DNA from: Dioszegia crocea
Taxonomy: Eukaryota; Basidiomycota; Tremellomycetes; Tremellales; Bulleribasidiaceae
Reading direction: 5' to 3'
Assembly (NCBI GenBank): GCA_001600615.1
Contig: BCKK01000002.1
Location: forward strand, 1,456,809 to 1,520,808
DNA: 64,000 nt
Shown in pieces: positions 4,546 through 36,601 of the stretch. The notes under the pieces are model-generated. The model ran no database searches, was not told the origin of the DNA, and saw nothing but the letters and a program-made list of their open reading frames with translations. Position 1 is the stretch's first letter. Each line of letters opens with the position of its first letter. Position numbers and translations under genes: made by a program.

Positions 4546-5372
4546 TGTGTATGATTTGACGTAGTAAAGGTGTACAAGTGAGAGATGCGGTTGAAGTAAT
4601 GCGCTCCGTATAGGTCTGGTATATATATCCTTTGTCCACCGGCTGCTAGTGTCTGCTTGGCCGGATGCTGTGCGTCACTAGCCATTGGGCAAGCGGCGGT
4701 GCACAAGGCCGAGGAGGGCACTGAAACAGAGCGTGACGTCATCACTCGGAGGTATGTCGCCGACCGGCACCGAGGACTAGGAGCTATCTGTTAATGCTGA
4801 TACCTATCTTCATGCTTCACGTCGGAGGAGCTCAATGCATCATAGTCTATCTATATACCCATAGCCGTGTACATTGTCCACACATATACGACCGTTCACT
4901 ATGTACTCGCCCTCGCTAGTCCGACACCCCGACGACATCAACTCTCACCCAGACGTCCACTCCCCTTCGCCCTATCCATCCCAACACCAATCCCTTCACC
5001 CTACTCCACATTCCTCCAGTAAACAGCACACAAAGTGCCCAAATCCACTCACGAGACCGAAAGAACCACTGCGCACGGCTCAAACCCGAAGGTGAGCGGG
5101 TGACAGGGGGATCGGTTACGGAGAAATAAGGGCGGTCTAGGTGGGTCGATCGAAAGAGGTGGGGAAGAAGGGGGAGGAGAGGGCGAGAGAATGGACGGAT
5201 TGTAGATGGAAGTGTGGTCTGACTTCAAGGAGTCTTGAAATGTATTGTTTGTAGCGGTGTATTCGACGAGGATAGATGTTTCGGTCGAGTGTGAATGATA
5301 TCCGGGTATAGTTCGACGGCCGGCGCCAATTGTTGATGTGCTTCTCCCTCATCATATCCTCCCCAACCCAAT
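4546..5372. other. Intergenic: LURP-like promoter and HXL1 3' region
   Basis: Tail-to-head spacer of about 830 bp between two minus-strand genes. It holds the promoter of the LURP-one-like gene and the 3' UTR of the bZIP gene. A short plus-strand frame (4901-5095) rich in Ser/Pro/His has no intron or domain support and I do not call it. Confidence 0.5.
4620..4628 (-). promoter_or_regulatory. TATA-like element upstream of the LURP-one-like gene
   Basis: TATATATA on the minus strand, about 75 bp before the ATG at 4545. Spacing suits a TATA box with a very short leader. Called by eye only. Confidence 0.4.
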
Positions 5373-6722
5373 CTAAATCACCCCAACCTCTCCCCTGATC
5401 CCCAACTCCAGACCACTTGCCGTTACCGGGCCATCCGCCACAACCTCGTTGATCCCTCCAGCCCCCTCCAACTCCGCCAACAACAGCTTCATCCCCTCAT
5501 CCCACCCCGCCTCGACGCGACTCCATTGGTCCGCCTGCGCTCCACCCTCTTGCCCCTGCCAGCCCGCCACTTCCCCAGTGACACCTGTGAAGTCGAAGAA
5601 GGAATCCATCCTCTGATCTTGGCCAATGCTACTAGCACCCTCGCCACTCCATCCAACCGTTTCTCCGTCACCAGCGCCGGATCCCATCTCGCCACTGCCG
5701 ACATATCCGAAATCAAGCCCGAGTCCGTTCTCGCCCGCTGCAGGGACCTCTCTGTTTGCACAGAGGGGGTCGCCACCGCTGCTGGGTGGCAAGCAAGAGG
5801 GGAATTGGGTGATGATTGTTGGATAGTGTCGGTAGAGCCGAGAGGGAGGGAGCTGGAAAGGGAGTAGAGGGTTGGTGAGAGTTGACGAGTAGGTTGTGGT
5901 GCTAGAAAGATGTCGTCTTTTGAGGAAGTTTCCAAGGATGGGTTAGGGGTGGTGGAGGGGTTGAAGATGGAGTCCCAGTTTAGGGGTTCGTAAGAGCCAC
6001 CACTTTGTAATGGTTCCACTTGAGAGGTGTTGACGGCGTCAAGGTTTGACACCGCAGCCACCTGCTTCACAAGGCTCTCAAGGAGGTTAAGCCTGGTGCG
6101 CAAGGCAGCGTTCTCGGCGCGAAGTTGGTCAACAACCGAGGGCGGTGGTGACTGCTCAAACACAAAAGGCTTGATATCGGTATCGATAGATGGGACGCCC
6201 GGTGGAGGTGGGGCGACCGCGGCGAGGTTGATACCGCCAGAAGTGAGGGGGAAGATGCTCGACACGAGGGTATCGGTGGAAGGGGCAGGTGAAGGTGAGA
6301 TGTGTTCGGGTGTGGGAGTAGGGCGAAGCGTTGATTTGGGTGGCGGTGTAGATATCGCACCGCTGCGTAACCGCTTGTTCTCCTCCTCCAGCTCCACCAC
6401 TCTCACTTCCAGCCACGCTAGATGTGCTTTACGCTGATTGCGAGAGCGTTGTGCGGATTCCCGATTACGGATAGTCTGATCTGTCAGCACAGGCGAAAGA
6501 GGGGCAGAACAAAGGATGTACCCTCGCATCTTTCCTAGCCTTCTTTTCTAGTAATGTCTCATCTACCGGCGCTGACTGGTCGTCGTCGTCCTCGTCACCC
6601 ATATCATTGTCATCATCCGGGAGGAGTGACGATGATGCAGATGCGTTAGAAGGGCGCGAACGCTTGGCGGAGGGGGTAGAGGATGAGGAAGGGGCAGATC
6701 GTTTGGTGGCGGTGTTTGTCAT
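5373..6722 (-). CDS. HXL1: HAC1/XBP1/HXL1-type bZIP transcription factor of the unfolded protein response
   Basis: Nuclear bZIP activator of ER-chaperone genes. Exon 1 is 6722-6522 (67 codons, Ser/Lys/Asp-rich). A normal intron with branch TGCTGAC runs 6521-6476. Exon 2 (6475-) opens with the basic region TIRNRESAQRSRNQRKAH and a leucine-zipper heptad series WLEVRVVELEEENKRLR. A second heptad stretch, DQLRAENAALRTRLNLLESL, follows some 100 aa on. Read straight through, the frame stops at 5489 (395 aa) with an Arg-rich tail. Removal of 41 nt (5781-5741), bounded by two Ire1-type hairpins, shifts the frame so that the protein ends at 5373 (420 aa) with an acidic/Gly-rich tail containing MDSFFDFTGVTGE and EGMKLLLAELEGAGG, a plausible activation domain. 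Regulation by Ire1 splicing is inferred from the hairpins and the frame change. Low homology outside the bZIP is usual for this family. Confidence 0.85.
5741..5781 (-). promoter_or_regulatory. Predicted Ire1-dependent non-spliceosomal intron (41 nt)
   Basis: In the mRNA the 5' site sits in hairpin GCCACC-[CAGCAGC]-GGTGGC (5790-5772): six Watson-Crick pairs with a 7-nt loop, cut after the third loop base, G5782. The 3' site sits in GTCC-[CTGCAGC]-GGGC (5747-5733): four pairs including one G.U, again a 7-nt loop, cut after G5741. Both loops fit CNG|CNGN, the Ire1 consensus known from yeast HAC1 and animal XBP1; the 3' heptamer equals that of XBP1 as I recall it. Excision of 41 nt (not a multiple of 3) joins G5782 to CA5740-5739 as an Ala codon and opens the second frame. 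A GT-AG alternative (5776-5730, 47 nt) would enter the same frame but has no branch site or pyrimidine tract. Confidence 0.8.
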
Positions 6723-7050
6723 TGTTGTTGTCGAAAAGGGATTTTTTGGGATGGGATTTGGTGTACAAGATGGGCTGACGATACTATTACAGGGCGTTGG
6801 GTATTATTACAGAATCTATAGTGGTCGACGTGGAAGGTATGAATGATCAATCAATGCTTGTCGACGTGGAATGACCTGGAACTTGCGGTAATTCCCGCTG
6901 TGCTGCAACGACCGCCACACTCACTCTGACCGGAACATCCCGCTCTCCCAAATACTTCCGTCACTCTACTGAGGGCACTCTTTACTCGCATACTATCCAC
7001 CCTATACATTCCACCCCAAACCCTACCCCTACACAACAAAAGTAGCCATC
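6723..7050. other. Divergent promoter region HXL1 / ATP15
   Basis: 330 bp between divergent start codons. The ATP15 side (6990-7040) is CCCTAC/CCAAACC-rich, as in a fungal leader. I see no TATA box and cannot point to a specific factor site. Confidence 0.45.
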
Positions 7051-36512: not shown

Positions 36513-36601
36513 TGATTTAGGTGGGGATCGAACCCACGACCTCCCGCGCATCGCAAACGAGCTTGTGAAGCGGGTGCTCTAACCAACTGAGCTACCAAAC
36601 C
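36513..36601 (-). tRNA. tRNA-Val (anticodon CAC) with 15-nt intron
   Basis: The 89-nt gene folds to a standard 74-nt tRNA. The acceptor stem GGTTTGG/CTAAATC has two G.U pairs and discriminator A. After TA comes D-stem GCTC/GAGC with loop AGTTGGTTA, anticodon stem CCCGC/GCGGG, variable loop AGGTC, and T-arm GTGGG-TTCGATC-CCCAC. The anticodon loop is TTCACAC after removal of a 15-nt intron (36563-36549) at the canonical 37/38 position. Anticodon CAC reads GTG. TTTT directly after the discriminator (36512-36509) is a Pol III terminator, with another TTTTT near 36490. The internal A and B boxes (TAGCTCAGTTGG, GGTTCGATCCC) are intact. Confidence 0.95.
36549..36563 (-). other. Intron of tRNA-Val(CAC)
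   Basis: Fifteen nucleotides between A37 and C38, removed by the tRNA splicing endonuclease. The boundary is set by requiring the CCCGC/GCGGG anticodon stem and a 7-nt loop. Confidence 0.8.

What the first reader, a model, noticed from the sequence alone, without database searches (positions are those of the whole stretch)
5733..5790. Two Ire1-type hairpins and a frame-switching 41-nt intron in an HXL1/HAC1-like gene
Seen directly: on the minus strand a 6-bp stem with loop CAGCAGC and, 35 nt on, a 4-bp stem with loop CTGCAGC. Both loops obey CNG|CNGN and are exactly 7 nt. Cutting each after the third base and joining removes 41 nt and shifts the frame from an Arg-rich tail ending at 5489 to a 122-residue acidic tail ending at 5373. 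Established: yeast HAC1, animal XBP1 (26-nt intron) and Cryptococcus HXL1 (56 nt, from memory) work this way. Inference: this is the local HXL1 with a 41-nt intron, shorter than that of Cryptococcus. Spliced form 420 aa, unspliced 395 aa.
Basis: partly seen in the sequence, partly recalled or inferred. Interest (0 to 1): 0.9.

Follow-up and report, generated by a model that had tools for sequence, protein, structure and literature searches.

The report
Fungal stress-response mRNA with Ire1 intron
This is the local copy of a known fungal stress-response gene (HXL1) whose message is cut and rejoined to change its protein ending; the cut site is ordinary for this fungal class, but the ending made when the message is not cut is also conserved, which suggests that the uncut form has a job of its own.

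Summary
The gene is a tremellomycete HXL1 orthologue, closest to Dioszegia hungarica (48% over 96%). Six relatives' ORFs on short, probably RNA-derived contigs read H-(P/S)-A-A|G-E, the junction that the Ire1 cuts predict and the GT-AG alternative does not. Ire1 kinase-RNase and RNA-ligase domains are in the genome. The one Rfam match is the Hac1/Xbp1 intron family, below cut-off. The length is ordinary: 32-101 nt inferred in 35 relatives. Against the drawing: the 3' hairpin is weak in folding (p about 0.02 or less). New here: the unspliced frame carries an 18-residue segment, RLxxVARVxVALAKxRGW, found in 41 of 85 relatives held. It is conserved as protein while the spliced frame over the same bases drifts (8-17 of 18 against 1-7 of 17 identical; 0 of 40,000 recodings reach it). 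So unspliced Hxl1 is probably translated and used, as argued for vertebrate XBP1; ER targeting or a degron are the likeliest roles.

The parts
6522..6722 (-). exon 1 of the HXL1 orthologue, ATG at 6722-6720
   Evidence: the protein aligns with relatives from near its start
6476..6521 (-). conventional GT-AG intron, 46 nt, phase 0, before TIRNRESAQRSR
   Evidence: the junction ARTIRNRES is contiguous in many relatives
5489..6475 (-). exon 2 read without Ire1 splicing (unspliced frame, stop 5491-5489)
6362..6472 (-). bZIP domain
   Evidence: Pfam PF00170 E 8.4e-11, PF07716 E 8.3e-7, both above cut-off
6047..6136 (-). second predicted helix, coiled-coil-like (holds LRAENAALRTRLNLLESLVKQ)
   Evidence: AlphaFold helix 114-143 of exon 2, block pLDDT 83, 94, 93 up to residue 140
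5772..5790 (-). 5' splice-site hairpin GCCACC-CAG|CAGC-GGTGGC, cut between 5782 and 5781
   Evidence: RF04247 alignment
5741..5781 (-). Ire1-type intron, 41 nt
   Evidence: spliced junctions in relatives
5750..5765 (-). hairpin inside the intron CTCTGT-GCAA-ACAGAG
   Evidence: in the MFE fold of each of the four windows tried
5733..5747 (-). 3' splice-site hairpin GTCC-CTG|CAGC-GGGC, cut between 5741 and 5740; weak in folding
   Evidence: loop aligned by RF04247
5720..5807 (-). whole twin-hairpin region with exon-exon pairing, full-length match to Rfam RF04247 (bZIP non canonical Hac1/Xbp1 intron), below the gathering score
   Evidence: 27.4 bits, gathering 41, E 0.016 in 1.6 kb
5373..5740 (-). 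3' exon in the spliced frame: acidic tail, stop 5375-5373
   Evidence: tail aligned with relatives
5463..5504 (-). conserved spliced-frame motif WDEGMKLLLAELEG; the unspliced stop TGA 5491-5489 lies inside it
   Evidence: alignment of spliced tails
5606..5659 (-). unspliced-frame segment RLDGVARVLVALAKIRGW (residues 340-357), conserved across Tremellomycetes, predicted helix

Best explanation
The locus is the HXL1 (HAC1/XBP1-type) gene of a tremellomycete. Its mRNA loses a 46-nt GT-AG intron in the nucleus. Under ER stress, activated Ire1 would cut both CNG|CNGN loops in the cytoplasm, remove 41 nt, and the fungal-type RNA ligase (Trl1) would join the exons. That moves the ribosome from a 97-residue basic tail to a 122-residue acidic tail with the conserved WDEGMKLLLAELEG motif, making the active transcription factor. 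Shown here: anatomy, orthology, the junction in relatives, conservation of parts of both tails, Ire1 and ligase domains in the genome. Inferred: Ire1 dependence and stress regulation in this organism, the ligase's identity as Trl1, and the activator role of the acidic tail. Added inference: the unspliced tail is also translated and selected.
For: Exact anatomy; rarity of the twin loops; bZIP; tremellomycete orthologues, best Dioszegia hungarica 48% over 96% of the query. Junction H-(P/S)-A-A|G-E in six short-contig sequences P0002, P0004, P0015, P0018, P0024, P0044, contiguous across the place of the GT-AG intron. Unspliced and spliced forms of what appears to be one gene, contiguous there in both, in two taxa (P0036/P0018, P0058/P0015; 25 of 25 and 24 of 25 overlapping residues compatible). 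RF04247 is the only Rfam match in 5300-6900 at E up to 1. Ire1 kinase and RNase domains, RNA ligase PF09511 E 2.4e-57, no RtcB match. C. neoformans HXL1 splicing is Ire1-dependent in print (PMC3154848, section 7 and passages read).
Against: The 3' hairpin is not in the MFE fold. RF04247 scores 27.4 against a gathering score of 41, and a genome-wide RF04247 search listed nothing, this site included. Pfam found no domain in the three frames expected to hold the Ire1 luminal part and membrane span, so Ire1 rests on its kinase and RNase. The PF09511 match spans two in-frame TGA, which I take for introns without test. No RNA from this organism was available. No DNA of relatives was available, so base-pair covariation was not tested.
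Confidence: 0.93

Rival explanations
1. A spliceosomal GT-AG intron 5776-5730 (47 nt) makes the frame switch, and the hairpins are incidental.
For: It exists and reaches the same frame, giving 418 aa.
Against: It would remove the G-E that follows H-P-A-A; the six relatives' short-contig spliced sequences keep it. Donor GTGGCG and acceptor GGCGAG look poor by recalled fungal consensus (not tested). Twin loops of this kind are rare by chance.
Confidence: 0.04
2. The conserved unspliced tail segment is a co-translational ER-targeting signal: the nascent chain brings the unspliced mRNA to Ire1, as hydrophobic region 2 does for unspliced XBP1.
For: Segment in 41 of 85 relatives held, selected in its own frame, short hydrophobic run between basic residues, predicted helix. 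The 3'UTR bipartite element of HAC1 mRNAs was not detected in C. neoformans HXL1 (PMC3154848, passages read), so another route may be needed. The XBP1u precedent is in print (PMC4456659, passages read).
Against: It is short, its mean hydrophobicity is near zero and it is not amphipathic (17 sequences). The product of unspliced HXL1 mRNA was not detected in C. neoformans (PMC3154848). No pausing peptide was identified.
Confidence: 0.35
3. The conserved unspliced tail segment is a degron that removes any factor made without stress, as the 10-residue Hac1u tail does in budding yeast.
For: The product of unspliced HXL1 mRNA was not detected (PMC3154848); degron precedent (PMC5114014, passages read); exposed hydrophobic segments are common degrons (recalled).
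Against: A degron alone would not obviously need about 18 positions of sequence conservation.
Confidence: 0.3
4. The unspliced-frame conservation is a by-product of selection on the spliced frame, codon use or RNA structure.
For: The two frames share bases; the spliced frame at the same place is also better than random given the unspliced frame (z 2.4, 235 of 40,000). The Arg-rich end beyond the segment may be such a by-product: it is weak in two Kwoniella (5 K/R of 30 in P0014, 1 of 34 in P0021).
Against: 0 of 40,000 spliced-frame-preserving recodings reach the observed score (z 5.6; z 5.1 with four relatives only); two near relatives share 17 of 18 residues in the unspliced frame but 7 of 17 in the spliced frame over the same bases.
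Confidence: 0.1

Closest known systems
HXL1 of Cryptococcus neoformans / C. gattii
   Same: bZIP, one GT-AG intron upstream and the Ire1-type intron downstream of the bZIP region (PMC3154848), H-S-A-A|G-E junction and acidic WDEAMKMLIEDLEG tail (P0004), conserved unspliced segment (P0026, P0055)
   Different: intron 41 nt instead of 56; this protein is 39% identical over 92% to P0004; no experiment in this organism
bZIP gene MKK02DRAFT_44074 of Dioszegia hungarica (P0001)
   Same: 48% identity over 96%; same intron length of 41 nt inferred
   Different: its public gene model passes into the spliced frame by some other join and skips the unspliced segment
vertebrate XBP1
   Same: short Ire1 intron that switches frame; unspliced tail argued to be functional from the evolution of the overlapping frames (Nekrutenko and He 2006, seen only as cited in PMC7580959)
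   Different: 26-nt intron (seen in an abstract of the listing); unspliced XBP1 has a known targeting region 186-208 and a pausing sequence (PMC4456659); homology of the tails was not tested
Saccharomyces cerevisiae HAC1
   Same: Ire1 and Trl1 splicing of a bZIP mRNA
   Different: 252-nt intron and translation block by 5'UTR pairing (PMC3154848), 10-residue degron tail (PMC5114014); no such pairing was detected for C. neoformans HXL1

Membership tests
HXL1 (HAC1/XBP1-type Ire1-spliced bZIP factor) | bZIP domain | tested here: met
   PF00170 and PF07716 above cut-off
HXL1 (HAC1/XBP1-type Ire1-spliced bZIP factor) | orthology to Cryptococcus HXL1 along the protein | tested here: met
   P0004 39% over 92%, E 1.2e-38; in the own genome only one other match, weak (E 3e-5, 32% over residues 7-117); no tree was built
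HXL1 (HAC1/XBP1-type Ire1-spliced bZIP factor) | two 7-nt loops CNG|CNGN at the intron ends | tested here: met
HXL1 (HAC1/XBP1-type Ire1-spliced bZIP factor) | both loops held on stable stems | tested here: inconclusive
   5' stem p 0.75-0.88; 3' stem p 0.025 or less in unconstrained folding
HXL1 (HAC1/XBP1-type Ire1-spliced bZIP factor) | removal switches the C-terminal frame | tested here: met
   395 to 420 aa; spliced tail aligns with relatives
HXL1 (HAC1/XBP1-type Ire1-spliced bZIP factor) | Ire1 and a ligase in the same genome | tested here: met
   kinase plus PF06479 on contig C6; PF09511 on C4
HXL1 (HAC1/XBP1-type Ire1-spliced bZIP factor) | Ire1-dependent, stress-induced splicing | not testable with these tools
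   needs RNA from this organism
Rfam RF04247 (Hac1/Xbp1 intron) | score at or above the curated cut-off | tested here: not met
   27.4 bits against 41, though full length and with both loops aligned
XBP1u-like unspliced tail | unspliced frame under protein-level selection | tested here: met
   protein-level comparison, no DNA of relatives
XBP1u-like unspliced tail | hydrophobic region able to reach membrane or SRP | tested here: inconclusive
   short basic-flanked hydrophobic run, predicted helix, not amphipathic, mean hydrophobicity near zero
XBP1u-like unspliced tail | translational pausing peptide | not testable with these tools
   ribosome profiling needed

The most novel reading that the evidence does not exclude
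In Tremellomycetes the unspliced HXL1 mRNA is translated, and the 18-residue segment in its overlapping frame does an XBP1u-like job: the nascent chain takes its own mRNA to the ER and Ire1, in place of the yeast 3'UTR element that was not detected in Cryptococcus HXL1. This would be a basidiomycete counterpart of vertebrate XBP1u, either convergent or ancestral.
Probability: 0.35. Interest if true: 0.75.

Novelty: new member of a known kind. Interest (0 to 1): 0.5.

Why it matters
The splice site adds one more case to a known kind. The conserved unspliced tail is more useful: it predicts that unspliced Hxl1 is a made and working product in a fungal class, and it turns the question of how HXL1 mRNA finds Ire1 without a detected yeast-type element into a testable one. 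Seven relatives' sequences, gene models by their look, pass into the spliced frame without showing this segment, so annotation hides it.

Tried and rejected
GT-AG splicing 5776-5730: rejected because six relatives' spliced sequences keep G-E at the junction. 41 nt as an unusual length: rejected. Amphipathic membrane helix: rejected, hydrophobic moment not high among shuffles of the same residues (41-88% of shuffles reach it in 17 sequences). Arg-rich end as the selected part of the unspliced tail: doubted, weak in two Kwoniella. 5'UTR-intron pairing: best run 11 nt with wobble pairs, not tested against chance, not pursued. Region search with the unspliced tail alone gave only P0001 and P0003 (2 of 129 candidates). 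Genome-wide RF04247 search: uninformative, missed this site and rang in 7 of 14 prokaryote controls, none over the cut-off. Structure model: only the helices are usable, pTM 0.21. Covariation of the hairpins: not tried, I had no DNA of fungal relatives; the scans of viral contigs and genome contigs were not used.

Full report
What is there. On the minus strand a two-exon gene runs from ATG 6722. A 46-nt GT-AG intron (6521-6476) precedes TIRNRESAQRSRNQRK, the basic region of a bZIP domain. Two hairpins with 7-nt loops CAG|CAGC and CTG|CAGC lie at 5790-5772 and 5747-5733; cutting after the third base of each removes 5781-5741, 41 nt.

Chance. A pair of such loops on one strand, 15-300 nt apart, with each stem at least 4 bp and one at least 6, occurs once in the 64-kb window, at this place; 60 dinucleotide shuffles give 0.1 on average, and 1 of 5000 gene-length shuffles gives one of 110 nt or less with the right frame shift. 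The only Rfam match in 5300-6900 at E up to 1 is RF04247, the Hac1/Xbp1 intron family, full length with both loops aligned, 27.4 bits, E 0.016, but below its gathering score of 41. Folding supports the 5' hairpin (p 0.75-0.88) and a hairpin within the intron, but not the 3' hairpin, which is 4.9-6.3 kcal/mol worse than the best fold. The loop sequence is in place; its stem is weak on paper.

Whose gene. The best relative is a bZIP protein of Dioszegia hungarica (Tremellales, Bulleribasidiaceae), 48% identical over 96%. Of the 54 hits, those that carry an organism name are Tremellomycetes (placed by recall, except Dioszegia). Both homologue searches scored only the candidates sharing most words (7989 and 7990), so the lists are capped. 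The window's genome is 20.6 Mb in 17 contigs. It holds Ire1 by its kinase and RNase domains on contig C6 (no Pfam match in the three upstream frames), an RNA-ligase domain of the Trl1 kind, no RtcB match and no second HXL1 beyond one weak bZIP-region match. The experimentally known member is HXL1 of C. neoformans: Ire1-dependent removal of 56 nt (PMC3154848, section 7 and passages).

Is the cut where predicted? Among the 85 relatives held (the last eight, P0078-P0085, are agaricomycetes, unnamed or, in one case, a plant), 11 contain [H/G][P/S]AAGE. Six of them (P0002, P0004, P0015, P0018, P0024, P0044) are single ORFs on contigs of 1.6-3.0 kb and are contiguous across the place of the GT-AG intron. 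I infer that they come from RNA; the tool does not say so. P0064 (Naematelia encephala, 158-kb contig) is a gene model with the same junction. The other four (P0010, P0012, P0041, P0043) read G-P-A-A-G-E after unrelated letters and look like gene models that enter the frame by an annotated intron. All six short-contig sequences read H-(P/S)-A-A|G-E, as cutting at CTG|CAG predicts; the GT-AG alternative 5776-5730 would delete G-E. In two taxa both forms of what appears to be one gene are held, each contiguous across the GT-AG intron (P0036/P0018 and P0058/P0015), so removal of the second intron looks separate and partial.

Length. From unspliced-frame proteins the intron length can be counted: 32-101 nt in 35 relatives (101 is the Cryptococcus paralogue P0052; 32-80 without it), 41 in the window, in Dioszegia and in two others (P0003, P0042), and 56 in C. 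gattii P0026, the published figure for Cryptococcus. In yeasts 19-848 nt is in print (PMC6222058, passages). So 41 nt is ordinary. The count assumes no further annotated intron inside.

The unspliced tail. In the unspliced frame, 54 bases at 5659-5606 encode RLDGVARVLVALAKIRGW. A matching segment is found in 41 of 85 relatives. Ten others have the upstream Q-R motif but no segment: seven of these end in the spliced frame, so they must leave the unspliced frame by an annotated join (P0001, P0006, P0009, P0013, P0027, P0032, P0069), and three lack it (P0051, the Cryptococcus paralogue P0052, the agaricomycete P0081). The remaining 34 could not be judged by that script. The census used a pattern built on the first sequences seen, and the 41 include near-duplicates, so it is neither blind nor a count of independent events. 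AlphaFold, from an alignment of 25 unspliced forms, makes the segment a confident helix (residues 338-355, block pLDDT 86-88) in an otherwise poor model (pTM 0.21).

Which frame is selected? For five taxa both frames are known (the window by DNA, four by a pair of proteins whose overlapping residues fit one DNA at 24 or 25 of 25 places). Over the segment the unspliced frame has 8-17 of 18 identical residues between taxa and the spliced frame 1-7 of 17; the unspliced frame is ahead in each of the ten comparisons. An earlier run with two looser pairs (P0049/P0024 at 23 of 25, P0050/P0015 at 24 of 25) gave the same ranges. The two nearest taxa (P0063/P0024 and P0058/P0015) share 19 of 19 upstream and 17 of 18 segment residues in the unspliced frame, against 13 of 17 and 7 of 17 in the spliced frame. 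If the window's spliced protein is held fixed and its codons are drawn at random by local use, none of 40,000 recodings matches the relatives' segment as well (59.0 against 11.7 plus or minus 8.4). The reverse test gives a weaker signal for the spliced frame (z 2.4, 235 of 40,000), so both frames seem constrained, the unspliced one more. The ten comparisons are not independent, and codon use came from 831 codons.

What the segment may do. It is a short hydrophobic run between basic residues; it is not amphipathic and its mean hydrophobicity is near zero. Two precedents fit. Unspliced XBP1 carries a weak hydrophobic region that is captured by SRP and takes the mRNA to the translocon and Ire1 (PMC4456659, passages). 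Unspliced Hac1 carries a degron (PMC5114014, passages). In C. neoformans HXL1 the 3'UTR bipartite element and 5'UTR-intron pairing were not detected, nor was the unspliced product (PMC3154848, passages). The first fact favours targeting, the last a degron or a short-lived nascent role. In C. neoformans the spliced but not the unspliced gene restored most ire1 phenotypes (as reported in PMC7580959, passages), so the unspliced product is not a substitute activator. I put targeting at 0.35 and a degron at 0.3. The Arg-rich end after the segment may be a by-product of the acidic spliced frame, since it is weak in two Kwoniella.

Novelty. The intron is a new member of a known kind. For vertebrate XBP1, functionality of the unspliced product has been argued from its overlapping frames (Nekrutenko and He 2006, seen only as cited in PMC7580959), and functions of unspliced hacA have been proposed in Aspergillus (same passages). 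I found no such claim for HXL1 in the searches, which cover open-licence papers only and were read mostly as listings. Hooks and Griffiths-Jones 2011, a survey of these introns, is not held.

Noticed in passing
relatives P0052, P0053, P0054 and P0044 (Cryptococcus; P0044 unnamed, placed by its sequence; not in the window): A second HXL1-like bZIP gene in Cryptococcus has an Ire1-type intron of about 101 nt by frame count (P0052), and a probable transcript of a relative reads the spliced junction HSAAGE (P0044). The published RT-PCR screen of five C. neoformans candidates reported splicing only for HXL1; whether this gene was among them is not known.
   Followed up: partly
relatives P0078-P0084 (P0078, P0081, P0084 are named agaricomycetes; not in the window): Unspliced-looking proteins carry HLAR(V/M)A and (L/Q)QR(V/A) blocks that resemble the two hairpins here, so the same frame switch may be present; P0081 lacks the unspliced segment, the others were not judged.
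   Followed up: no
relatives P0001, P0006, P0009, P0013, P0027, P0032, P0069: These sequences begin in the unspliced frame after the Q-R motif but end in the spliced frame, so annotation seems to bridge the Ire1 frame switch with an ordinary intron and loses the unspliced segment.
   Followed up: partly
36513-36601: tRNA gene on the minus strand (RF00005, 58.4 bits), 89 nt long, so perhaps with an intron.
   Followed up: no
5765-5750: A stable extra hairpin sits inside the 41-nt intron between the two cut-site hairpins; its role and conservation are unknown.
   Followed up: no
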